In this document: piece by piece, positions 15-12,793 of the stretch
How the letters are laid out: each line of letters starts with the position of its first letter
How positions within the stretch are numbered: the stretch's first letter is position 1
Source of the DNA: Bdellovibrionales bacterium
GTDB taxonomy: Bacteria > Bdellovibrionota > UBA2361 > JAGRAS01
Length of the DNA: 12,793 bases
Assembly (NCBI GenBank): GCA_020434465.1
Contig: JAGRAS010000012.1
Location: 1-12,793 of the forward strand
Direction of reading: 5' to 3'
The notes under the pieces: generated by a model
Told to the model about the DNA's origin: nothing
What the model saw: only the letters and a program-made list of their open reading frames with translations
The model's database searches: none
Position numbers and translations under genes: made by a program

Positions 15-20
15 CCTCCT
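15..20 (-). promoter_or_regulatory. Strong Shine-Dalgarno for the gene after murE
   Basis: Read on the minus strand this is AGGAGG, overlapping the end of the murE stop codon (TAGGAGG). It is the best ribosome binding site in the window and shows that another gene follows murE in the same operon, murF being the usual occupant. No ATG or GTG occurs in the 14 bases left before the window edge. CTG at 6-4 sits at a normal spacing; otherwise the start lies just outside. Confidence 0.65.
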
Positions 21-1485
21 ATCTAACCTCCTTAAATGATTGCTTAGCATGATTCACATCTGAAAAATCATTCTTTTTATCACCAATAATTTGATAATTT
101 TCATGCCCTTTCCCTGCAATTAAAATTACATCATCCGCATCTGCATTTTTAATAGCATATCGTATGGCATCTGCACGATCTGGTTCTACCAAAACTTCTC
201 TTGTAGTACCCTTCTTGATTTGTTCGATAATTTCAAGTGGTTTCTCAGAGCGAGGATTGTCTGAAGTTATAACCACAAAATCAGCTAACTCACTTGCAAG
301 TTTACCCATTACAGGTCTTTTCTTAGCATCTCTATCACCTCCACATCCAAAAACTACCCATAGTTTATTTGGTGAAATTTTTCTTAAGGAAACAAGCGCA
401 TGCTTTAAGGCATCAGGGGTATGAGCATAATCAACAAATGTGCTTGGGCTTTCTGTGGCTAGCTCTAACCTTCCAGGTATCTGCGGAATATCATCTAAAA
501 ACTCAACCAAGTTTTCTAAATCTAACCCAATGCTTGTGCAAAGTGCCAAAGAAGATATTAAATTATAAGCATTATGTTCGGCAATCAACGGGCTTTTAAA
601 TTTAATCGATTGATTTTTAACTTTTAATTCAATATGAGTACCCGTTGCATCGGCTCCAAGAATTGTAAAATTAAGATCAGCAGATTTATTAGTACTAATA
701 GATTTTTTATTCTTACAATCTAGTTTTTCAAATAGAAGCTCCCCCCATCTATCATCAATGTTAATATACGCACTTCCATTACTTGCAAGTAAATCAAATA
801 GGTGTTGCTTTGCATTAAAATAAGAGTTTTCATCTGAAAAATAGTCTAAATGATCATGAGTTAAATTTGAAAAAACAGCTCCAGTATATGGCACTGATTC
901 AACTCGGTATTGAGTAAGTGCATGAGCTGAGCTTTCCATTACAACAGTTTGTATTCCCTGTTTTAAAGCATCTCGAAAAAGATCATGCAACTCAAACGAA
1001 TCGGGAGTTGTAAGAGCAAGCTCTTTTTCAACTCCAGGCCCTTTAACTCCGAGCGTTCCGATTGAAAGCGTTTTAGTTCCACTGAAATTTAAAAGATTAG
1101 CTGTAATCCAACAGGTACTAGACTTTCCATTCGTTCCCGTAATTCCCAAAATCTTTAACTTCTTTTCAGGAGCTCCAGTAAGAATTGAAGCAATCTTAGA
1201 TTTTGCCAGTCGAGTATTTTCAACCACTATTCCTGGTAACCCATTAAGATAAGTTTCATCTGCAACTAAGGCAGCAATAGCACCATTATCTACTGCATTA
1301 CTAACTACTGTATGACTATCAAAACTTGTTCCTTTTACAGCAATAAATATTGAATTTTCTGAAACGTCTGAGCTTGAATCACAGGCAGACTTGATAAGCA
1401 AATCATTTTCAAGATTAACTAATTTTGCATCTAGCAAATCTGCTAGCTCTTTTATTGAAGTAGGCTGCTCGGCTCTTAAAATCAT
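19..1485 (-). CDS. murE: UDP-N-acetylmuramoyl-tripeptide synthetase (meso-DAP adding)
   Basis: Cytoplasmic ATP-dependent ligase that adds meso-diaminopimelate to UDP-MurNAc-L-Ala-D-Glu, the third step of peptide stem assembly. The 488 residues match the usual Mur ligase length and three-domain plan. Visible are the P-loop GITGTNGKSS (114-123), the lysine expected to be carbamylated (K226 in FNAKQHLF), the HNAYN segment (304-308), and the C-terminal DNPRSEKP motif (409-416) followed by GKGHE (458-462). DNPR is the signature of DAP-adding enzymes; lysine-adding ones differ there, so the cell very probably has DAP-type peptidoglycan. It lies 40 bp after ftsI and is the last complete gene of the operon here. 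The ATG at 1485 has only a weak AGG close by. Identification is secure. Confidence 0.97.
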   Translation of the reverse strand: MILRAEQPTSIKELADLLDAKLVNLENDLLIKSACDSSSDVSENSIFIAVKGTSFDSHTVVSNAVDNGAIAALVADETYLNGLPGIVVENTRLAKSKIASILTGAPEKKLKILGITGTNGKSSTCWITANLLNFSGTKTLSIGTLGVKGPGVEKELALTTPDSFELHDLFRDALKQGIQTVVMESSAHALTQYRVESVPYTGAVFSNLTHDHLDYFSDENSYFNAKQHLFDLLASNGSAYINIDDRWGELLFEKLDCKNKKSISTNKSADLNFTILGADATGTHIELKVKNQSIKFKSPLIAEHNAYNLISSLALCTSIGLDLENLVEFLDDIPQIPGRLELATESPSTFVDYAHTPDALKHALVSLRKISPNKLWVVFGCGGDRDAKKRPVMGKLASELADFVVITSDNPRSEKPLEIIEQIKKGTTREVLVEPDRADAIRYAIKNADADDVILIAGKGHENYQIIGDKKNDFSDVNHAKQSFKEVR

Positions 1486-1525
1486 AGCCTAACTATAGAT
1501 GGTAAAACTAAATTGGTCATCAACT

Positions 1526-3343
1526 TTAAAGCGAAACCCTTCTTAAAAGCGAAGGGGTAAGCTCATCATCTTCATCTATATTTTTAATGATATGTTGACG
1601 AGTTGAATAAAGATGCAGACTTCTTTTTAGAATCCTTCTAAATACAGGAGCAGCTAAAGTACCTCCATAAATTGAACTTGTATTTGGCTCATCAATTGCC
1701 ACCATTAATGCTACAGTTCTGTCGTAACCAAGCTCTCTTCCATCAGCAAAGCCAATAAAAGATGCGATATAAGCCCCTTTTTGATATCCACGAGTTTCTG
1801 GATTTGGTTTTTGAGCTGTACCTGTTTTACCACCCACTCTTAAACCGTCGATTCTTGCTTTCTTACCAGTTCCAGAATCTGACTCAACAACTCCATACAT
1901 CATTTCTTTAGCATCTCTTGCTGCCGATTCAGATATGACTCTGGTTAATGTATATGGTTCTTCTGATTTAACAACTCTAAGATTTGGAAGATTTCCCCCA
2001 TTTGCAATAGCTGATACAGCCCTTACCATTTGTAAAGGAGTTACAGCGACTCCTTGGCCAAAAGAATGAGTTGCAACATCAACCGTTGCCCAGTTCTTTC
2101 TTGATCTTAAAATTCCTGATGTCTCACCTGGCAAACCTAAATCAGTAGAATTACCAAATCCAAACTTAACTAAATAGTTATATAACTTGTCTGGACCCAT
2201 TCTGTAAGCAACTTTACTCATACCAATATTAGAAGACTGCACAACTACATCATAAAAACTTGCATCATCTAAAGGATGAACATCCTTAATTGTGTGTTTG
2301 CCCACCCTAAATCTGCCATGCTCACAGTAAATCATCTCAGTAGGTTTGATTGCGCCACTGTCAATTGCAGCAGCAGCAACAATTGGTTTTAAAATTGAGC
2401 CAGGCTCAAAGACTGTTTCAACTAAAAGATTTTTTAACTCTTTCTTGGAAAAACTTTTAGAGCTATTGAAATTAACATTAGGAGCTTGGCTTAAAGCTAA
2501 AATCTCGCCAGTATTTGCATCTACCATTACAGCCATGGCCGCTTTTGCATTTGCTTTACTCCTTCCCCTTTCTAACTCTTCTTCAACAATAGATTGTATC
2601 GCAGCATCAATTGTTAAGGACAAAGATTTTCCTTGAGGTAAATCGAACTCTTCATCAGAACCAAATGCTACTTGTATTTTATTGCCTAAAGCATCACGAA
2701 CAACTTTTGTTTTAACTTCTGAACCTTGAAGCCTTTTCTCATAAACCATCTCAAGACCTGAGAGACCATTACCATCAACACCCACTCTACCAATTAGTGT
2801 TGAGGCTGCTTCATTATATGGATAATAACGCTTGGACTCTAAGGTTGATCCAATACCTTTTAAATTTAAATCTTCAATTTTCTTTGCATATAATCTTGGA
2901 ACTTGTCTTTTTATCCAAACAAAGGGTTTAGGCTGCTGCATTAAGCTCTGCACTTTATCAGCATCCATATCTAGCACATCTGCTACAGCTAAACTTGCTT
3001 GCTTGATATCCACAACATTCTTTGGTCTTACATAGATAGACTGAGTTGGCACTGAGACTGCAATTTTTTTCCCATTTCTATCGTAAATAGTGCCACGTGC
3101 TGATGCGATTTTGATCTCCTGGAAGTGTTGTTTAATCGCCCAGTCTTGCCATCTGTTGAATTGAGATATTTGTAAAGTATAGAGACGCCATACAATTAAA
3201 CTACTCCAAAGAACTATACCCAGAAAAATAAAAACAAGTCTGTTTTTCCTACTTCTCGGGCTAAGCACGTTACCTGAAAAGCTATGCTTATTTATCGACG
3301 CAAAGTCAGTTGTTACTTTTTTCTTCTTTGTAGCATTGAACAT
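1526..3343 (-). CDS. ftsI: Septal peptidoglycan transpeptidase (PBP3, class B PBP)
   Basis: Septum-specific D,D-transpeptidase that cross-links peptidoglycan at the division site, partnered by FtsW and the FtsL-FtsB-FtsQ complex. The 605-residue protein has a basic cytoplasmic N-terminus (KKKK at 6-9), one membrane anchor at about 36-53, and the class B dimerisation-domain motif RGTIYDRNG (83-91). The transpeptidase domain carries all three active-site motifs: S316-I-L-K319 with the nucleophilic serine, S370-S-N372, and K506-T-G508. No PASTA domain follows, which distinguishes it from Gram-positive relatives. Its ATG directly follows the ftsL stop (TAGATG) and no Shine-Dalgarno is evident, so translation is probably coupled to ftsL. 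The position between ftsL and murE supports FtsI over the elongation paralogue PBP2. Confidence 0.95.
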   Translation of the reverse strand: MFNATKKKKVTTDFASINKHSFSGNVLSPRSRKNRLVFIFLGIVLWSSLIVWRLYTLQISQFNRWQDWAIKQHFQEIKIASARGTIYDRNGKKIAVSVPTQSIYVRPKNVVDIKQASLAVADVLDMDADKVQSLMQQPKPFVWIKRQVPRLYAKKIEDLNLKGIGSTLESKRYYPYNEAASTLIGRVGVDGNGLSGLEMVYEKRLQGSEVKTKVVRDALGNKIQVAFGSDEEFDLPQGKSLSLTIDAAIQSIVEEELERGRSKANAKAAMAVMVDANTGEILALSQAPNVNFNSSKSFSKKELKNLLVETVFEPGSILKPIVAAAAIDSGAIKPTEMIYCEHGRFRVGKHTIKDVHPLDDASFYDVVVQSSNIGMSKVAYRMGPDKLYNYLVKFGFGNSTDLGLPGETSGILRSRKNWATVDVATHSFGQGVAVTPLQMVRAVSAIANGGNLPNLRVVKSEEPYTLTRVISESAARDAKEMMYGVVESDSGTGKKARIDGLRVGGKTGTAQKPNPETRGYQKGAYIASFIGFADGRELGYDRTVALMVAIDEPNTSSIYGGTLAAPVFRRILKRSLHLYSTRQHIIKNIDEDDELTPSLLRRVSL

Positions 3344-3661
3344 CTAGTACTTAAGCCTCCGTGCTTGCTCAGGCTTAAGAGCTTGCAAACCTAGACGGCT
3401 AATAGCTTGTTTCTCTAGATTATCTGTTCTTAATAGCACGGAAAGTTGCAACTCAAGCTCTCTTTTTTCCATATCTAAGCTATAAGTCTCTTCTCTTTGT
3501 TCAGCAAGCTGATATCCAAGATTTGTACACTTTAACTGTATCCAAACTTTTGCAGCTAGAATAACTAACAAGAAAAAAATTATCATTAACTGCAAACGAA
3601 CAGAAACTACAACCCTACTTTTTGTAGTCTGCACCGATCTATAATCCAAACAAACTGCCAT
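3344..3661 (-). CDS. ftsL: Cell division protein FtsL
   Basis: Small bitopic membrane protein of the divisome that pairs with FtsB through a periplasmic coiled coil and helps activate FtsWI. It has 105 residues: a short basic cytoplasmic tail, a single hydrophobic segment at about 22-41 (LQLMIIFFLLVILAAKVW), then a charged, leucine-rich helix from about 48 to 85 with heptad-like spacing that suits a coiled coil. FtsL sequences diverge quickly, so the call rests on size, topology and position between rsmH and ftsI, which is canonical. GAGG lies five bases before the ATG at 3661, a clear ribosome binding site, and fixes the start. The stop abuts the ftsI start codon with no gap. Confidence 0.9.
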   Translation of the reverse strand: MAVCLDYRSVQTTKSRVVVSVRLQLMIIFFLLVILAAKVWIQLKCTNLGYQLAEQREETYSLDMEKRELELQLSVLLRTDNLEKQAISRLGLQALKPEQARRLKY

Positions 3662-3678
3662 ATTAACCTCAATAAACC

Positions 3679-3709
3679 TTAAAAAAATTCATACTCATTT
3701 AAAAAAATT
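3679..3709. repeat. Two A7-tract repeats in the rsmH-ftsL gap
   Basis: The 11-base string TTAAAAAAATT occurs at 3679-3689 and again at 3699-3709, exactly 20 bp apart, within the 56-bp gap between rsmH and ftsL. Two A-tracts about two helical turns apart would add to a static bend. In DNA this AT-rich, chance is a fair alternative. Confidence 0.5.
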
Positions 3710-3717
3710 AAACAAGT

Positions 3718-4635
3718 TTAACCACATCCTAAAAACTCAAATGCACGCAACATCGCACTTCTAGATCTTCGATTTTTATCTATCTCTTCTTCACCTGGTT
3801 TTACAGCTTTCGACGTTAATAGTTTCCCTAGCGTCTTCACTTCTTGCATGCCTCCCCATAAAGCTGGGGCAAACTCACCTTGCCATTTTCTCATTGCTCT
3901 TGCTACCAAACGATCTTCAAGCGAATGAAATGAAATAACTACCAAGCGTGCTCCTGGCTTTACATGCTTAGGAACTTTCTTAAGAAGCTCATCTATTTCA
4001 TCAAATTCTTGATTAACAGCTATTCGAATTGCTTGAAAAACTAAGGTTGCAGGATTCCTTTTTTTACCACCTTCATATCGTTCAACTGCCCGCTTGATAA
4101 CTTCTGCCAACTGACTTGCATTATCAAACGGGCGATTTTGAACGATAGCTCGGCTCGCAGGCCTTGCTTCTTTACCCACCCCACCTTTTTTTAAAAGAGT
4201 AAATAACTCTTTTTCACTTAAGGTGTTAACAAGAAAATTTGCTGTAATCTCAGCTTGCTCATTCATGCGCATATCCAGACTTTCTTGATCACTAAATGAA
4301 AATCCTCGCCCCTCGGCAAGCTGATCACTTGACGTACCTAAATCTGCAATTATTCCATCAAAAAGAATCTGCTGATCAATGAACTTATCGAAATCTGAAA
4401 ATTGTGTGTGATGTAAACTGAGGCGCTCTTGAAATTTTTCTTTTAAAATTTCAGCTCTCTCTATTGCCCTAATATCTTGATCTAAAGCTACCACTTTACT
4501 TTCTGCACTCGCCTCAAGAATAGCTTTGGTGTGCCCTCCGCCACCAAATGTACAATCTAAAAACAAACCTCCCTGGCTAGCTTTCAAAAATTCAAGCACC
4601 TCTGCTAACATTACGGAGGTGTGCAATGAACTCAT
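3718..4635 (-). CDS. rsmH: 16S rRNA (cytosine-1402-N4)-methyltransferase
   Basis: S-adenosylmethionine-dependent enzyme (formerly MraW) that N4-methylates C1402 in the decoding region of 16S rRNA. The 305 residues cover the whole family length. Motifs in order: the SAM-binding loop DCTFGGGGHT (27-36), LDQD (51-54) at the end of strand 2, DLGTSS (98-103, canonically DLGVSS), GFSF (111-114), DMRM (121-124), the family stretch PATLVFQAIRIAVNQE (195-210), SFHSLEDR (235-242), and the C-terminal RRSRSAMLRA (289-298). The first ATG is kept because the conserved H-x-x-V-M-L-x-E-V-L segment starts at residue 5. It begins one base after the mraZ stop with no clear Shine-Dalgarno, so translation is probably coupled to mraZ. 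Confidence 0.97.
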   Translation of the reverse strand: MSSLHTSVMLAEVLEFLKASQGGLFLDCTFGGGGHTKAILEASAESKVVALDQDIRAIERAEILKEKFQERLSLHHTQFSDFDKFIDQQILFDGIIADLGTSSDQLAEGRGFSFSDQESLDMRMNEQAEITANFLVNTLSEKELFTLLKKGGVGKEARPASRAIVQNRPFDNASQLAEVIKRAVERYEGGKKRNPATLVFQAIRIAVNQEFDEIDELLKKVPKHVKPGARLVVISFHSLEDRLVARAMRKWQGEFAPALWGGMQEVKTLGKLLTSKAVKPGEEEIDKNRRSRSAMLRAFEFLGCG

Positions 4636-4636
4636 T

Positions 4637-5137
4637 TTATATATCTAGCTCAGCAAACAAATCAGGATCCTCCATAAGTGCTTTTTCTGATTCTTCAAAC
4701 GTCAATTCCCACACCCTGCGATCCCAAATACGAAAACCATTTATAGATGAAGTAAAAGTAATCTCCTTTTCTAGCCCTGCATAGTTTTTTAAATATGCTG
4801 GTATAAGAATCCTTCCACTTCCATCCACTGCAAGCTCAGCAGCCCGGCTTAAATAAAAGTTTTCAAGCTGTTGGAGCTTGGAACTAAAACGACTCTTTTC
4901 ACGAAGTTTACTTTCGAATTTATTCCAGCCAGTAAGACCAAAACCCTCAAGACATCTAGCACCTTGAGAGATATAGTTAGTTAGAACAATACGGCCTTCA
5001 TCATTGTCAGCCAAAACTCTTCTAAACTCTGCTGGAAGATTTACGCGCCCTTTTGAATCAATAGAGTGCGTAAAGTTTCCCCTAAAGGAGAGGGGCGAAC
5101 CTGTAAAAAAACCTGGTTTTTTGTCTGAGTTGCTCAT
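4637..5137 (-). CDS. mraZ: Transcriptional regulator MraZ
   Basis: Nucleoid-associated DNA-binding regulator that heads the dcw operon and, in characterised species, binds TGGGN repeats in front of its own gene. Two SpoVT/AbrB-like half-domains are visible, each with the DxxxR motif: D27-S-K-G-R31 and D105-G-S-G-R109. The family usually begins almost at the first domain (F-R-G); here 17 residues precede F18, a polar and glycine-containing extension. No ATG, GTG or TTG near F18 offers a shorter start, so the extension looks real. Total length 166, somewhat above the usual 140-155. The initiation region has only a weak GAG. A candidate operator and promoter lie 45-106 bp upstream. Confidence 0.95.
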   Translation of the reverse strand: MSNSDKKPGFFTGSPLSFRGNFTHSIDSKGRVNLPAEFRRVLADNDEGRIVLTNYISQGARCLEGFGLTGWNKFESKLREKSRFSSKLQQLENFYLSRAAELAVDGSGRILIPAYLKNYAGLEKEITFTSSINGFRIWDRRVWELTFEESEKALMEDPDLFAELDI

Positions 5138-5421: not shown

Positions 5422-5667
5422 ATGAAAAATGACGACCTCCCAAAAGTGGCTTTGAACAAGCCAATTGTTCTAGAAATGGAAGCTGGTGAATACTGGTGGT
5501 GTGCTTGTGGCCTATCAAAAAACCAACCATTTTGTGATGGCTCACACAAAGGAACAGACTTTTCTCCAAAAAAATTCGTGTTAGAGGAAAATCGAAAAGT
5601 TGCTTGGTGCGCCTGCAAACACACCAAAAAAGATTGCCTTTGTGACGGAACTCATAAAAATCTTTAG
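5422..5667 (+). CDS. Dual CDGSH-type iron-sulfur protein
   Basis: Small cytoplasmic protein of 81 residues with two complete CDGSH zinc-finger-like motifs, each expected to hold a [2Fe-2S] cluster through three cysteines and one histidine. Motif 1: C27-x-C29, then C38-D-G-S-H42. Motif 2: C63-x-C65, then C74-D-G-T-H78. An extra cysteine, C72, lies inside the second motif. There is no signal peptide or membrane anchor, unlike the mitochondrial family members. Tandem-CDGSH proteins of this size are known in bacteria; their electron-transfer or cluster-transfer partners are mostly undefined, and nothing here identifies one. It is divergent from mraZ across 284 bp and is followed 49 bp later by an exported protein on the same strand. 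The family call is secure, the role is not. Confidence 0.9.
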   Translation: MKNDDLPKVALNKPIVLEMEAGEYWWCACGLSKNQPFCDGSHKGTDFSPKKFVLEENRKVAWCACKHTKKDCLCDGTHKNL

Positions 5668-6190: not shown

Positions 6191-6215
6191 AAAAAAATTT
6201 TACTCTTTTAAAATT
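6191..6215 (-). terminator. Weak AT-only terminator-like hairpin after glmS
   Basis: On the minus strand AATTTTA, a six-base loop and TAAAATT form a perfect seven-pair stem followed by a run of T. It overlaps the glmS stop codon. The shape is that of an intrinsic terminator, but the stem has no G-C pair and would be unstable, so support is limited. Confidence 0.3.
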
Positions 6216-8049
6216 ACTCTACGGTAACACTCTTTGCTAAGTTTCGTGGTTGATCAACATCAGTACCGTTTAAAACTGAGACATGATAAGCCAGAAGTTG
6301 CAGTGGGATATTAAGAACTATTGGGCTAACTTCTTCATTAATAAAAGGAACTTCAATTACATGATCGCAAATGTTTGTAAGTTCAGAAATATTATCATTA
6401 TCTGTAATTGCAATAATCTTTCCAGCTCTAGCATGAGCTTCTCGTAAACCACTTAAAGTTTTTTCAAAAAGTGCGGTAGATCTTTGTAAAACAACAACAA
6501 CAGGCATAGATTCATCAATTAAAGCTAAAGGACCATGCTTCATTTCGCCGGCAGGATATGCCTCAGCATGAATATATGAGATTTCTTTAAGTTTTAAAGC
6601 GCCTTCTAAAGCTATTGGAAAGCACGTTCCCCTACCCAAAAACAAAAAGTCTTTAGCAGTATGAAAGGCTTTTGCTACTTCTAGGATTTCAGAGTCAGTT
6701 TGCAATGCTGCATCAAGAGCTGTAGGCAGCTTTAGTAGGCCATCTAATAGTTTATGTGATCTTTCAGTATCAATGCTAGTACGTTGCTGACCAATAAACA
6801 TAGCAAGCAAGTAGACTGCAACTAGCTGCGTTGTAAATGCTTTAGTAGATGCAACAGATATTTCAGGACCAGCATGAGTATATAAAGTATAATCAACTCT
6901 TCGAGTCAGGGTAGAACCCAAGACATTACAGACAGCAAGTGTTTTAGAAACATTCCTAACAAGTTCTATTGCCCCAAGAGTATCTGCAGTTTCTCCAGAT
7001 TGGGATATGCTTACAATCAATGTCTTTTCATCAAAAATAGGTCGGCGATATCGATATTCTGATGCGTAATCTACTTCACAAGGTATTCCTGCAAAATCTT
7101 CTATATAGTACTTTGCTAACAAACAGGCATGCCAAGCTGTACCGCAAGCTATTAAAACAATTCGCTCGATATCTTTAACAGTGTTAGAAAAAGAATCTAG
7201 CTCTGGCAAAGTTACCTGTGCAGACTCCATGTTCATGCGACCACGGAAAGTTTCTGCCGCCACAACAACTTGCTCATGAATTTCTTTCATCATGTAATGC
7301 TTAAAACCACCCTTCTGAGCAGTTACTGGATCCCAAGTAATTCTTTGAGCAGCTCTTTCTACTGTCTCACCATTATTTTCTATATGAATTGAAGACAACA
7401 TTACTTCAGCTAGATCCCCATCTTCTAAAATAATAATATCACGTGTAATCTCCAAGACTGCAGGGATATCACTCGCAATTATCACCTCCCCTTCAGCAAA
7501 TCCAATAACAATTGGTGTTGCGTTTTTAGCTACTAAAATCCTATCAGGATTTTCCTTGTCTATTGCTAAGAAAGCATAGCTACCTCTAATCTCATTACAA
7601 GCAGCCTTTAACGCTTCAAAAGGCGACTTACCTGCTTGAACAAATGAATCAATTAAATGAGCGGCAATTTCTGTATCGGTTTCAGAATTAAAACTTCGAC
7701 CCTGCTTAGATAAAACATCTCTAAGCTCCATATAGTTTTCAATTATACCATTATGAATTAAGCTTATTCTGCCGGCGGTATGAGGATGGGCATTATTTTC
7801 AGATGGCTTGCCGTGCGTTGCCCATCTAGTGTGACCAATTCCAATATTAGAATTACCGGTATTAAGCCTATCACCCAAAGCCTTTTTCAGAACTTCAAGC
7901 TTTCCCATCGCTCGACTAACTTTGATTTCACCATCTTCTAATCTTGCGATTCCAGCAGAGTCATAGCCACGATATTCCAGCTTTTCCAAACCAGAAACTA
8001 TTACTCTCAAGGCATCTTGATGACCTAAATATCCTACTATTCCACACAT
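6214..8049 (-). CDS. glmS: Glutamine-fructose-6-phosphate aminotransferase (isomerising)
   Basis: Makes glucosamine-6-phosphate from fructose-6-phosphate and glutamine, the entry step to UDP-GlcNAc for peptidoglycan and lipopolysaccharide. The N-terminal glutaminase begins with MCGIVGY, so Cys2 is the nucleophile after Met removal and the start is certain. R75-W76, N100-G101 and D125 are the other glutamine-site residues. Two SIS sugar-isomerase domains follow, with the sugar-phosphate loop S349-Q-S-G-E-T354 and, in the second, LKLKEISYIHAEAYPAGE through H505. The C-terminus keeps the catalytic lysine (K606) in AKSVTVE. Length 611 is standard and no key residue is missing. It lies 68 bp after the histidine kinase on the same strand and may have its own extended -10 promoter there. 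The gap is too short for a glmS ribozyme. Confidence 0.98.
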   Translation of the reverse strand: MCGIVGYLGHQDALRVIVSGLEKLEYRGYDSAGIARLEDGEIKVSRAMGKLEVLKKALGDRLNTGNSNIGIGHTRWATHGKPSENNAHPHTAGRISLIHNGIIENYMELRDVLSKQGRSFNSETDTEIAAHLIDSFVQAGKSPFEALKAACNEIRGSYAFLAIDKENPDRILVAKNATPIVIGFAEGEVIIASDIPAVLEITRDIIILEDGDLAEVMLSSIHIENNGETVERAAQRITWDPVTAQKGGFKHYMMKEIHEQVVVAAETFRGRMNMESAQVTLPELDSFSNTVKDIERIVLIACGTAWHACLLAKYYIEDFAGIPCEVDYASEYRYRRPIFDEKTLIVSISQSGETADTLGAIELVRNVSKTLAVCNVLGSTLTRRVDYTLYTHAGPEISVASTKAFTTQLVAVYLLAMFIGQQRTSIDTERSHKLLDGLLKLPTALDAALQTDSEILEVAKAFHTAKDFLFLGRGTCFPIALEGALKLKEISYIHAEAYPAGEMKHGPLALIDESMPVVVVLQRSTALFEKTLSGLREAHARAGKIIAITDNDNISELTNICDHVIEVPFINEEVSPIVLNIPLQLLAYHVSVLNGTDVDQPRNLAKSVTVE

Positions 8050-8117: not shown

Positions 8118-10031
8118 CTATGCTGAAAATTTATCAGACGAAATACCCACCTCAAGTACCTCTACCCCCATCACCTTACGAATTTCACTAAAAAGCATAT
8201 TCGAGTTAATTGGTTTAGAAACGTATCCATCTAATGGCGACTCAGCTATGCGTTTCTTATCGGACAATAATGCAAATGCAGTAACAGCGATTATTGGAAT
8301 ATTAGGATCTATCTCTCGAATAAGCTGTGATGCCTGGAACCCATCCATTACTGGCATTTGAAGATCCATTAACACAATCTCAACAGAATTTTCCTTAAAA
8401 ATCTTTATAGCATCTCTACCAGATGGAGCAGAAAAAACAGTATGACCAGCTTTTTCTAAAACTTTTTGTATAAGCAAAAGGCTGATTTTATTGTCATCAA
8501 CAGCTAATATCTTCAAAGGCCTTATCTTAAAGGTTTTGCTACTAGGAGGTGGCACTGGATTCTCATGTAGATCATAATAATTTGTCGGCTCGAGAGAAAT
8601 TGTTTCAATATAAAAAACAAACTCACTTCCCTTACCTACTTGGCTTGTCAATTTAATCTTACCACCCATTAATTCTGTTAAACGGTTAGAAATCGATAGA
8701 CCTAGACCTGTTCCTCCATAGGTTCTTGTAATAGTCGCATCTTCTTGAGTGAAAGACTCAAAAATCATATTTTGTTTTTCTGGAGGCACCCCAATACCAG
8801 TATCTGCTACTGAAAAATGTAGTTCTAATTCAATTCCATCTTTTGGCTCACTCCAAACTTTTACATTTACACTCCCATCAGGCTCAGTAAACTTTATTGC
8901 ATTATCAACTAAATTAATTAGTATTTGTCCCAACCGACCAGAATCAGCAACAACAAATTCAGGCACTTTTTTATCTATTTGAAAGCCGAAATGCACACCT
9001 TTTTCCCTAGCACGCAAAGATAATGAACCCACAATTTTCGTTAAATAATCTCTAACATCAAATGCAGATGGAACAAGTTCCAATTTACCAGCTTCAATTT
9101 TTGAAAAGTCTAATATATCATTAATTACACGCAATAAATGATCAGCAGAGACTTTTACCATACCTAAGTACTCTTTCTTCTCAACAGGCAGGTCAGTATC
9201 CAACAACAAATCTGTCATACCAATAATACCATTCATTGGAGTTCTAATTTCATGGCTCATATTTGCCAAAAATTCAGACTTAGCTTTATCAGCAGACTCA
9301 GCTTTTTCTTTTGCCGACAATAACTCTTCATTTTGTTTATCAATGATTTCTATCATGGAGTTAAAACTATTTACTAAGACACCTAGCTCATCCTTACCTA
9401 CTTGCTCAACTCTTTTTGAATAATCTTGATTAGCTGCAATTTCTCTTGTGGCACTAACTAATTTTTCAATTGGATCTGCAATTAGTGGCATCAAAAGAGC
9501 GGTGAACACTAAGCCAACAAGTAAAGAAAGGAAAAATACAACCACGCAAACTGTAGCGAATTTTTCAATCCTACTGTACAGCTCACGATCAGAAGCTAGT
9601 ACATATATATACCCAACTAAATCACCATCAAGAAAAATCTCTTGTCCTACTTCGATTTCCCCATTTGCCCAGCTATGCTCCAAATGAACTTTTTCAGGAA
9701 ACTTCACATCACCTGCCGAAGGGCGCTGAAACTTAGCTAAAATTCCAGCATCAAGGGTATACAAAGCAGCGGCTTTAATATGCGGCTCTTCTTCTAAGGC
9801 AGCTAACCTTTCACGTGCAGCTTCAGCATCAGCAAAAACTATAGCAGCTCTAGATCCAGAACCGACAATCCTAGATACAGTTGAAAGCTTATGATAATAA
9901 GTGTTTTTAAAGGATATAATTTCAGTTATTACAATTCCGCCTAAAGCAATCGCAAGAGAAAAAATACAGGTCGCAAGTACTACTATCCTTAGTTTAACAT
10001 TTATTGGAACGTGTCTAAGTAAATTAAACAT
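8118..10031 (-). CDS. CHASE8-type membrane hybrid histidine kinase
   Basis: Inner-membrane sensor kinase of 637 residues that should autophosphorylate on histidine and pass the phosphate to its own receiver. Order: TM1 (about 15-40); a periplasmic region (41-157) whose [16 protein letters not shown] segment is typical of CHASE8; TM2 (158-184); HAMP (about 180-235); HisKA with H260 in SHEIRTP; an ATPase domain with N-box N373-L-V-D-N377, G1 DTGIG (410-414), F-box and G2 GGTGLGL (439-445); and a receiver (507-620) with D512-D513, phosphoacceptor D556, T584 and K606. All catalytic residues are intact. There is no HPt domain, so a separate HPt protein is needed for onward relay. It follows the acyl-synthase/receiver gene by 104 bp. 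A six-pair hairpin (8095-8109) follows the stop, without a T-run. The stimulus is unknown. Confidence 0.95.
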
Positions 10032-10135: not shown

Positions 10136-11962
10136 TTAAACTGCATCGCTAAATGGCAGTTCTTTTAAGAATTCATAAGTATTTATCCCTTCGATTAGGG
10201 CAGATCTAACTGCATTCACAAGAACTTTTGGCTCAATTGGTTTAGATACATATTCATTCATTCCTGCATCAAAACATCTTTTTCTGTCCCCCTTCAATAC
10301 AAAGGCAGTGCAAGCAACTATTGGAATTCCAGATACGGGAGAGTCAAGTTTTCTTATTCGCCTAGCTGTTTCAAAGCCATCTAGCCCTGGCATCTGACAA
10401 TCCATAATGACAACATGAAAAACTTCTTCCCTAAGCATTTGCAAAGCTGAGAATCCAGAATGTGTGCCTTTAACAATCATTCCATAAGACTCAAGAAATT
10501 TTTTCAGTAAAAATCTACTAACTTGATTATCTTCTACAACTAAAACTTTCATACCACCTAAAATTTCGTATTCATTTTTTTGTGCTAAGTTCTGTGCATT
10601 AAGACTTAACGGGTGTTGGGTATCAACATTTAGCGCTTGCTCAAATGTTTCCTCAAAAATTGAAAACTCACAGGTAAAAACAAGGCGTCTTGAGTGCATA
10701 TGTACATTTTGTACTTCAACTATCCCACGCATTTCAGAATACAAAGTTCTTAAAAGCTTAAACTTGGGTGAAAAAACAAAATCTGTAATATCTAATTTAT
10801 CATCTAATTGTCTTGTATCAGGAAAAAAACTTACTTCCAAAACTTTTTTAGCTCCAGACTTTCTAATACCTTTAATAGTAGTCTTCAAAGTACCATAGGG
10901 GTTTATAAATGGGATTAGGTTCATACATGTGTAGTAAAATGCTTTTTCAAAAACCTCTACGCTACCAATTAAATTATCTTCTAGCCCGTCATCAACCGTA
11001 CATGAAAAAATAATTCTATTTTTCTGAAACTCGTTTTCAATTTTTTCAATACATTTTGTAAGAGACCACCTTAAAGGAAAACAATTAACTGAAGGGCTTT
11101 CTGCTAAACAATCAAGTTCAAATTCAGTTGGCAAAACAACTCCTTTAGAAACACTAATAGCAAGATTTTTAGTTAGTTGTTTTTGAATTTCTTGAGTTGC
11201 AAATGGATAAAGCTGAGAAAAAACCCATCTCGTAGAAATGTCTGCCTGCTCAAAAACACTTAAATCTTTATTGAGTAAATCAACAACTTGTTGCTCGTTC
11301 AGTCTTAAATGACTTAAAAAATCTTTCTCAGAATAAGGGCCTTCAAAAATCAACTTTTTACTAGCGCGCGTAGCTTTTTGATCTAGATTAACTCTTGCTA
11401 AATTACAGCGCATTAATAATGCAGGCGCTCCATTTGCATGCGGATAATCTTTCTCTTCAGCAAGAATCTCAAAACCTAAAATCCTATTCCAAAACACTTT
11501 ATGCTTTGGATTTATTACTAAAATTAATTCATCAACTTGCCTAACCTGCCCCCATTGAAAATACCATTTTAGCAAGTTTAGAGCCGTGCCTCCCATACCA
11601 CCTGGTTTACTATCGTCCACACAAGCGAATCTTGTACCCTCAGCAATTATTTTCCCGCCTTGCTCGAGCTGATCAACTTGATTTTTGAAAATTTGCTTTG
11701 AAGGCAATCCGGCTATTGAATTGGCAATTATAGAAACTGTCCCAACAATTTTTTCTCTTTCTCTGGCAACAAAAGTCATTGTCTCAGGAAGTAAATCTCT
11801 CAGAGTAAATCTTAAGCCATAAGAATTTTCTTTTGAATAACCAAACTTTAAATATTGTTTATAAATTAACTCAAAGGACTGAACCAACTCTTTATAATTG
11901 CTGACAGGCGAGATGATTAAATTGCGAATGTCATCGGATGTAGAGTTTGGATCTACTTTCAT
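10136..11962 (-). CDS. Acyl synthase (FeeM/LuxI-like)-pseudokinase-receiver fusion
   Basis: No single named family covers this 608-residue protein. Residues about 20-190 resemble the GNAT-fold core shared by N-acyl amino acid synthases (FeeM) and LuxI-type homoserine lactone synthases: FTLRDLLPETMTFVARE (52-68), then EGTRF (108-112), matching the E-x-x-R-F signature. These enzymes move a fatty acyl group from acyl carrier protein to an amino acid or S-adenosylmethionine. Residues 295-436 align without gaps over 65 positions to the ATPase domain of the neighbouring kinase, yet no phosphoacceptor histidine is seen, the G1 glycines are lost (DTRQL for DTGIG) and the ATP lid is deleted, so it should not be a kinase. 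Residues 471-590 are an intact receiver: E477-D478, D521, T552, K574. No membrane segment or signal peptide. No Shine-Dalgarno precedes the ATG. Substrate unknown. I infer that receiver phosphorylation controls acyl transfer. Confidence 0.75.
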   Translation of the reverse strand: MKVDPNSTSDDIRNLIISPVSNYKELVQSFELIYKQYLKFGYSKENSYGLRFTLRDLLPETMTFVAREREKIVGTVSIIANSIAGLPSKQIFKNQVDQLEQGGKIIAEGTRFACVDDSKPGGMGGTALNLLKWYFQWGQVRQVDELILVINPKHKVFWNRILGFEILAEEKDYPHANGAPALLMRCNLARVNLDQKATRASKKLIFEGPYSEKDFLSHLRLNEQQVVDLLNKDLSVFEQADISTRWVFSQLYPFATQEIQKQLTKNLAISVSKGVVLPTEFELDCLAESPSVNCFPLRWSLTKCIEKIENEFQKNRIIFSCTVDDGLEDNLIGSVEVFEKAFYYTCMNLIPFINPYGTLKTTIKGIRKSGAKKVLEVSFFPDTRQLDDKLDITDFVFSPKFKLLRTLYSEMRGIVEVQNVHMHSRRLVFTCEFSIFEETFEQALNVDTQHPLSLNAQNLAQKNEYEILGGMKVLVVEDNQVSRFLLKKFLESYGMIVKGTHSGFSALQMLREEVFHVVIMDCQMPGLDGFETARRIRKLDSPVSGIPIVACTAFVLKGDRKRCFDAGMNEYVSKPIEPKVLVNAVRSALIEGINTYEFLKELPFSDAV

Positions 11963-11976
11963 AGAATTTTAGTCTG

Positions 11977-12017
11977 AACTTAAACTTGAATTTCTTAACG
12001 CAATAGTAACTTAAACT
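11977..12017. repeat. Direct repeat AACTTAAACT, 31-bp period, in divergent promoter region
   Basis: The ten-base string AACTTAAACT occurs at 11977-11986 and 12008-12017, 31 bp apart, close to three helical turns, so both copies face the same side of the DNA. The first lies 14 bases upstream of the acyl-synthase ATG. The repeats sit in the 171-bp gap between that gene and the divergent oxidase gene and may be operator sites for one or both. Apart from the repeats and the oxidase ribosome binding site I see no firm promoter in this gap. Confidence 0.5.
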
Positions 12018-12122
12018 GCAAACTCAACAAAGGGAACTGAAGAATAAATTTGTAGTAACAATGTATTATTTTTGATTTTAAATTTATTTACTCTGAAAAA
12101 AATGCTACTGATTGTGACATTC

Positions 12123-12128
12123 AAAGGA
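12123..12128 (+). promoter_or_regulatory. Ribosome binding site of the flavin oxidase gene
   Basis: AAAGGA lies five bases before the ATG at 12134 and fixes that start codon. It is one of the few clear Shine-Dalgarno sequences in the window. Confidence 0.75.
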
Positions 12129-12133
12129 TATCA

Positions 12134-12793
12134 ATGACTGAGCCTCAAAAAATAGAAAGTTTTAGAGACAATTTTTTTAAAAGTGTTTTACTAAGCCTTG
12201 ATACAAACAGAGTATTAACTGATAAAAGTAAACTTTTTATACATGAGTCAAACACTATAGGTTCTAAAAAAAAACTTTCAGGTTTGATACAGCCAATTTC
12301 TGTACCTGAGATTCAAACAATCATTAAACTTGCTAATCAATATCAAATAGGCATCTACCCCATCAGCCTCGGAAAAAATTGGGGTTACGGTAGCAAATTG
12401 CCTCCTACAGAAGATTCTGTAGTTCTTGATTTGAGTAAAATGAGCAAAATTATTGACTACAACCCAGAGCTTGCTTACGTAATAATTGAACCCGGCGTCA
12501 GCCAGCTTCAGCTTTATGATTTTCTTAAATCTCAAGACGATAATCATGTAATGGATCCATCTGGAGCAGGCCCTAGCGCAAGTGTAGTTGGCAATATTCT
12601 TGAACGAGGCTTTGGAATCGGCCGCTATTGTGATCGCTTTACATCCGTTGCTGGTATGGAAGTTATTTTGCCAAATGGAGAAGTTTTAAAAACTGGATTT
12701 TGGGGTTTTGAAAATAGCAAACTAACAGGCACTCACCGTTGGGGAGTTGGACCATACCTAGATGGGATTTTTACACAATCAAGTTTTGGTATA
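12134..12793 (+). CDS. FAD-binding oxidase, vanillyl-alcohol oxidase/PCMH type (5' part)
   Basis: The frame is open to the window edge, giving the first 220 residues of a protein that in this family runs to roughly 500-560. Seen are the FAD-binding stretch PISLGKNWGYGS (76-87), VVLDLSKMSKI (96-106), IIEPGVSQLQLYDFL (117-131), a glycine/serine loop with VVGNILERGFG (151-161), and GMEVILPNGEVLKTG (174-188), then WGVGPYLDGIFTQSSFGI (203-220). These match vanillyl-alcohol oxidase and the flavoprotein subunit of p-cresol methylhydroxylase, which oxidise para-substituted phenols. The residue that would carry covalent FAD lies outside the window. No signal peptide is seen. It is divergent from the acyl-synthase gene, which suggests shared control. 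Family call good; substrate unknown. Confidence 0.85.
   Translation, partial: MTEPQKIESFRDNFFKSVLLSLDTNRVLTDKSKLFIHESNTIGSKKKLSGLIQPISVPEIQTIIKLANQYQIGIYPISLGKNWGYGSKLPPTEDSVVLDLSKMSKIIDYNPELAYVIIEPGVSQLQLYDFLKSQDDNHVMDPSGAGPSASVVGNILERGFGIGRYCDRFTSVAGMEVILPNGEVLKTGFWGFENSKLTGTHRWGVGPYLDGIFTQSSFGI

What the first reader, a model, noticed from the sequence alone, without database searches (positions are those of the whole stretch)
10136..11962. Acyl-signal synthase fused to a receiver: a response regulator whose output is small-molecule synthesis
The sequence shows a FeeM/LuxI-like core with the E-x-x-R-F motif (108-112) at the N-terminus and a receiver with every phosphorylation residue present (D521, T552, K574) at the C-terminus of one open frame. 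Known LuxI and FeeM-type synthases are usually single-domain enzymes controlled by transcription. A receiver on the enzyme would place synthesis of an N-acyl amino acid or acyl-homoserine-lactone-like molecule under direct phosphorelay control. I do not know of a characterised example, though I cannot search for one.
Basis: partly seen in the sequence, partly recalled or inferred. Interest (0 to 1): 0.8.

Follow-up and report, generated by a model that had tools for sequence, protein, structure and literature searches.

The report
Lipid-signal enzyme with receiver domain
A bacterial enzyme of the type that joins fatty acids to amino acids is fused to a decayed kinase domain and an intact-looking phosphate receiver, and sits beside a likely partner sensor kinase, so the cell may switch lipid-molecule synthesis directly by a phosphate signal.

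The parts
10136..11962 (-). FeeM - pseudo-HATPase - receiver fusion gene, 608 aa
   Evidence: homologues of the same length
11402..11878 (-). FeeM-type N-acyl amino acid synthase domain, residues 29-187
11639..11641 (-). codon of Glu108, the putative catalytic glutamate (position worked out from the translation)
   Evidence: Glu in 8 of 8 family members and in 39 of 39 FeeM proteins aligned (4 of the 39 are family members)
11093..11368 (-). helical extension, about residues 199-290, no kinase His motif
   Evidence: model secondary structure, partly low confidence; no DHp motif
10625..11092 (-). pseudo-HATPase domain, about residues 291-446, G1 and G2 boxes missing
   Evidence: hhalign probability 97%, E 8.1e-11, with 8 members; family profile hits the RetS kinase region at 6.7e-7; motifs absent
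10205..10546 (-). receiver domain, residues 473-586
10400..10402 (-). codon of Asp521, the expected phospho-acceptor
   Evidence: alignment with CheY, residue check
8118..10031 (-). CHASE8-HAMP-HisKA-HATPase-receiver hybrid histidine kinase, likely partner; His260, receiver Asp556, N, G1 and G2 boxes present
12134..12793 (+). FAD_binding_4 oxidase, divergent, cut by the window end; homologues in 4 of the other 5 loci of the family

Best explanation
[quoted passage not shown] The neighbouring CHASE8 hybrid kinase senses an envelope cue and autophosphorylates; phosphate reaches Asp521 of the fused receiver, directly or through an HPt protein encoded elsewhere; the change in the receiver is passed through the decayed kinase domain to the synthase and alters its activity or its docking. 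Shown: domains, catalytic and phosphorylation residues, loss of the G1 and G2 boxes, conserved kinase neighbour. Inferred: phosphotransfer, direction of control, substrates, product, and that the neighbours act on that product.
Against: The receiver is degenerate in 3 of 8 members (phospho-Asp replaced by Glu, Glu, Ala) and missing in 1. In G043 the neighbouring kinase is not among the pseudo-HATPase matches, and the L022 kinase is not listed at all and the L019 kinase is only eighth. The window protein and its two close homologues alone give only 22% for the HATPase match. The Asn of the N box seems kept in the window protein (N348 aligns with Asn in 21 of 22 kinases), so some nucleotide binding is not excluded. 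The five kinases scanned with Pfam have no HPt domain and none of the 9 window proteins scanned has one, so the phosphate route is open. The model does not fix how the domains pack (pTM 0.53). No product is known.
Confidence: 0.52

Rival explanations
1. The kinase remnant and receiver are a docking or scaffold module. They hold the synthase to the membrane-bound hybrid kinase or to a partner enzyme; phosphorylation of Asp521 is a leftover or only tunes binding.
For: The pseudo-HATPase is kept in 8 of 8 members while the full receiver set is kept in only 4 of 8; the kinase neighbour is kept in 6 of 6 loci seen.
Against: In the window and its two 608-aa homologues all the phosphorylation residues and much of the receiver are conserved, which a mere scaffold would not need.
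Confidence: 0.25
2. The protein regulates the kinase rather than the reverse: like RetS acting on GacS (recalled), the pseudo-kinase half binds the neighbouring kinase and changes its output, so that the synthase state feeds back on signalling.
For: Among PDB kinases the family profile matches RetS best, though close to others (E 6.7e-7 against 8.8e-7 for the next); the pseudo-HATPase is closest to the neighbouring kinase in 3 of 5 genomes.
Against: RetS acts through its DHp helices (recalled); no DHp motif is present here in any of 8 members.
Confidence: 0.13
3. The N-terminal domain acylates something other than an amino acid (an amino sugar or amine of the cluster product) or makes a homoserine-lactone-like signal; the regulation is as in the main reading.
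For: A glycosyltransferase and an oxidase accompany the gene; FeeM-type enzymes show structural homology to autoinducer synthases (PMC4897644, passages).
Against: The match is to FeeM, not to the autoinducer synthase model.
Confidence: 0.1

Closest known systems
[quoted passage not shown]
   Same: Same domain by sequence and fold, same catalytic glutamate.
   Different: The FeeM of 2g0b is a single domain of 198 residues; here a pseudo-HATPase and a receiver follow.
Nas343 / Nas354, FeeM-PilZ fusions (PMC4897644)
   Same: FeeM domain followed by a signalling domain that the authors propose to regulate the enzyme (passages); 12 of the 39 proteins listed also carry PilZ with FeeM.
   Different: The input proposed there is c-di-GMP through PilZ; here it is a two-component receiver behind a decayed kinase domain.
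Hybrid histidine kinases such as ShkA (6qrj) and RetS (6dk8)
   Same: HATPase followed by receiver; ShkA is the top Foldseek row of the model by E-value (8.3e-13, but TM only 0.21 to 0.27 and rmsd 21, so domain by domain), RetS the best kinase match of the profile.
   Different: No DHp histidine motif and no G1 or G2 box here; the N-terminal part is an enzyme, not a sensor.
Response regulators with enzymatic output such as PleD
   Same: A receiver in one chain with an enzyme that makes a small molecule (PleD rows).
   Different: PleD is a diguanylate cyclase; a receiver with an acyl synthase was not met in the listings.

Membership tests
FeeM-type N-acyl amino acid synthase | Match to the family profile above its cut-off | tested here: met
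   119.3 bits, cut-off 27
FeeM-type N-acyl amino acid synthase | Fold of FeeM | tested here: met
FeeM-type N-acyl amino acid synthase | Catalytic glutamate | tested here: met
   Glu108 aligns with position 96 of the 2g0b chain sequence, counted by me (taken to be the published Glu95, offset of one inferred); Glu in 8 of 8 members
FeeM-type N-acyl amino acid synthase | Makes N-acyl amino acids | not testable with these tools
   Needs expression and mass spectrometry
LuxI autoinducer synthase | Match to PF00765 | tested here: not met
   No match for this protein at E up to 1; of the 9 relatives scanned only L009 is listed, at 14.5 bits, under the cut-off of 24
Response regulator | Receiver with acid pair, phospho-Asp, Thr/Ser, Lys | tested here: met
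   E477, D478, D521, T552, K574
Response regulator | Phosphorylated by a kinase, output changes | not testable with these tools
   Needs phosphotransfer and enzyme assays
Histidine kinase | Phospho-accepting His motif of a DHp domain | tested here: not met
   No motif in any of 8 members; present in 6 of 6 neighbouring kinases
Histidine kinase | ATP-binding G1 and G2 boxes | tested here: not met
   Absent in 8 of 8 members, present in 6 of 6 neighbours; the N-box Asn seems kept in the window protein
HATPase domain (by descent) | Significant profile similarity to HATPase domains | tested here: met
   hhalign 97%, E 8.1e-11 with 8 members; the three 608-aa proteins alone only 22%, E 0.001; no Pfam HATPase match for the single protein
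FeeM-PilZ synthases | PilZ domain | tested here: not met
   No PF07238 match at E up to 1

The most novel reading that the evidence does not exclude
Lipid-signal synthesis is the direct output of a phosphorelay: the CHASE8 kinase senses the finished molecule or its envelope effect, and phosphorylation of the fused receiver switches the synthase, closing a feedback loop without a transcription step. The module arose when an acyl synthase captured a copy of the catalytic half of its own neighbouring kinase.
Probability: 0.18. Interest if true: 0.85.

Novelty: new variant of a known kind. Interest (0 to 1): 0.62.

Why it matters
Enzymes of this kind make membrane-active and possibly signalling lipids, and how they are switched is little known. 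A natural fusion of the synthase with a decayed kinase domain and a receiver, kept beside a sensor kinase in distant lineages, gives a direct way to test whether acyl amino acid production can be switched by phosphorylation. It also looks like a case in which half of a kinase was taken into an enzyme and then lost its ATP boxes, with a graded series of receivers from intact to lost.

Tried and rejected
Rejected: LuxI-type autoinducer synthase (no PF00765 match in the window protein); an active kinase half (G1, G2 and DHp motifs absent in 8 of 8); frame or assembly artefact (homologues of equal length). Tried with little result: relatives of the FeeM-plus-middle part in genome contigs and viral contigs (180 and 289 pattern matches, none confirmed); first structure model from 3 sequences (mean pLDDT 42, discarded); search of the window's own genome (not held); promoter and terminator scan of 11900-12200 (nothing); tRNA and Rfam (nothing); plasmid collection (12 records, none with 80% of the query; the 10 listed cover 35-45%).

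Limits of the controls. The profiles contain the five genomic members, so their own E-values there are by construction. The neighbours' high rank is against 77 proteins that had been collected by receiver similarity and are not a fair sample; for the window's receiver the best matches are such unrelated proteins, and its own neighbour is only 15th. The second structure model used an alignment with 22 hybrid-kinase-type proteins, so its HATPase fold (for example ETR1 4pl9, TM 0.74 by target) is not independent evidence; the profile comparisons are. VIA-align's list was filled by FeeM and receiver rows, so the middle domain was hardly tested there. One search scored only the 7998 candidates sharing most words and did not list four of the five genomic members, so it can miss relatives. 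In one search five matches below the FeeM cut-off (L010-L014) were dropped; the 12 over it split into 5 fused and 7 FeeM-only genes.

Paper searches for a synthase-receiver fusion, of which I saw listings with the starts of abstracts: 14 of 14 listed; 3 of 3; 4 of 4; 1 of 1; 10 of 51; 10 of 33; 2 of 2; 8 of 63. None of the listed titles or abstract starts speaks of such a fusion; the papers not listed were not seen. Only PMC4897644 was opened, passages only. The library holds open-licence papers only.

Full report
What is there. The finding's coordinates hold one gene on the minus strand, 608 aa. Pfam gives FeeM at residues 29-187 (E 1.8e-34) and a receiver at 473-586 (E 7.2e-28), and nothing above a cut-off in between. 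In a database of 5.8 billion proteins (7999 and 7920 candidates scored) the only relatives covering the whole protein are two 608-aa proteins at 62% and 60% identity; they align without gaps.

The middle. Residues 195-468 of the window protein and the matching part of seven others, as a profile, compared with 53 hybrid-kinase cores, give probability 97% and E 8.1e-11 for the HATPase domain (aligned from about residue 290); a FeeM control profile gives 0.5%. The three 608-aa proteins alone reach only 22%. The family profile also finds RetS (6.7e-7), ZraS (1.5e-5) and other kinases in the PDB. None of 8 members has a G1 (DxGxG) or G2 (GTGLG-like) box or a DHp histidine motif, while the 6 neighbouring kinases all have G1, G2 and the histidine. 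The N-box Asn seems kept in the window protein (N348, aligned with Asn in 21 of 22 kinases). So this is a histidine-kinase ATPase domain that has probably, not certainly, lost ATP binding.

A wider family. The one relative of the window's FtsI found in genome contigs (56%) lies in a MAG labelled Deltaproteobacteria (L001); there glmS lies beside the mraZ operon as in the window, but FeeM was not found in that 1.5-Mb genome, whose completeness is not given. In 45 genomes of its phylum FeeM is over the cut-off in 8. Five of the 45 carry FeeM plus pseudo-HATPase (E 2.3e-118 or better; they are part of the profile; no sixth appeared). One of these proteins is listed publicly as a hypothetical protein of a Bdellovibrionales bacterium (P0081). 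Identity of the five to the window protein is 17-25%. Counting all eight members: the receiver is intact in 4 (window, P0002, P0003, L006/L019), degenerate in 3 (L009/L020 with Asp to Glu and Thr to Ala; L015/L021 with Asp to Glu; L018/L023 with Asp to Ala), absent in 1 (L017/L022). Pfam still recognises a receiver in 5 of the 8.

The neighbours. Downstream of the window gene, after 104 bp, lies a CHASE8-HAMP-HisKA-HATPase-receiver hybrid kinase. The same type of kinase lies beside the gene in all 6 loci whose surroundings can be read (P0002 and P0003 could not be read): CHASE8 by Pfam in 5, by the related NCBIfam model in L023 (168.6 bits). It is the next gene downstream in 5 (gaps 104, 145, -4, 27, 341 bp; -4 is an overlap); in L022, the member without a receiver, the order is kinase, OmpR-type regulator, FeeM gene. 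A kinase-core profile finds these 6 and none in 7 FeeM-only loci; that control is weaker than it looks, since L024, L025 and L028 are contigs of 3.7 to 6.9 kb and the L030 gene is cut at a contig end. Matches of 130 bits or more to the N-terminal model of this kinase type number 22 in 15 of the 45 genomes (only 2 of them pass the model's cut-off of 194, and the window kinase with 172 does not), so by my judgement adjacency by chance is unlikely. A FAD-linked oxidase is present in 5 of 6 loci (the contig of L023 is 3.7 kb) and also at one FeeM-only locus (L029); a macrolide-type glycosyltransferase in 4 of 6 (window and L023 end early); a methyltransferase in 2; an OmpR-type regulator in 2; a YfiR-like protein in 2; a TonB receptor in 2 and also at FeeM-only locus L030. 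In the window only the oxidase and the kinase are visible. A Bdellovibrio plasmid carries a FeeM protein with another C-terminal part directly before a related glycosyltransferase (27.6%, E 1.5e-42).

Origin. Searching five whole genomes with the pseudo-HATPase profile, the best non-self match is the neighbouring kinase in G015, G017 and G042; in G028 it is the second non-self match; in G043 it is not listed. In a smaller test the four best of 83 proteins are four of the six neighbours, the L019 kinase is eighth and the L022 kinase is not listed; the other 77 had been collected by receiver similarity, so this test is biased. This suggests, without proving it, that the enzyme captured a copy of the catalytic and receiver half of its neighbour, after which the ATPase part decayed.

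How it most likely works. The kinase senses an envelope cue; phosphate reaches the fused receiver directly or through an HPt protein not seen here; the pseudo-HATPase passes the change to the synthase. The acyl product may then be modified by the oxidase and glycosyltransferase. Domains, residues and neighbourhood are shown; the signal path, its sign and the product are inferred. The loss of receiver residues or receiver in 4 of 8 members means that the kinase remnant, kept in all eight, may be the more important part, for docking or allostery.

Known or new. FeeM synthases with a PilZ domain are published, and the same paper says that NasP is activated by cAMP (passages), so direct control of such synthases by a signal is a known idea. 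I met no report of a receiver or kinase remnant on one in the listings named under Tried and rejected. Hence new variant of a known kind.

Noticed in passing
L022 7918-13521: The family member without a receiver follows a separate OmpR-type response regulator and the CHASE8 kinase, as if the regulator had stayed unfused; it could control the gene by transcription instead.
   Followed up: partly
L020 6961-8937 and L021 10689-12413: In two degenerate receivers the phospho-Asp is replaced by Glu, which in some regulators mimics the phosphorylated state (recalled).
   Followed up: partly
L024, L026, L027, L028, L029: FeeM-only genes of the same phylum sit within a few genes of E1/ThiF-like proteins (judged by eye from sequence starts, not scanned), a different kind of cluster.
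   Followed up: no
L061 255-2762 (Bdellovibrio sp. HAGR004 plasmid pBdHAGR2): FeeM protein of 415 aa directly before a glycosyltransferase related to those of the family's loci; its C-terminal part looks PilZ-like by eye but has no PilZ match in Pfam at E up to 0.1.
   Followed up: partly
L019 13141-15956, L020 9046-11709: TonB receptor and YfiR-like (DUF4154) genes next to the cluster, resembling the NCBIfam TonB / YfiR / kinase set but under those models' cut-offs where scanned; possible sensory part of the kinase.
   Followed up: partly
window 19-5137 and 6214-8049: mraZ-mraW-ftsL-ftsI-murE cluster with glmS nearby, similar to the order in L001.
   Followed up: partly
window 5422-5667: Small CDGSH iron-sulfur protein of 81 aa on the plus strand.
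   Followed up: no
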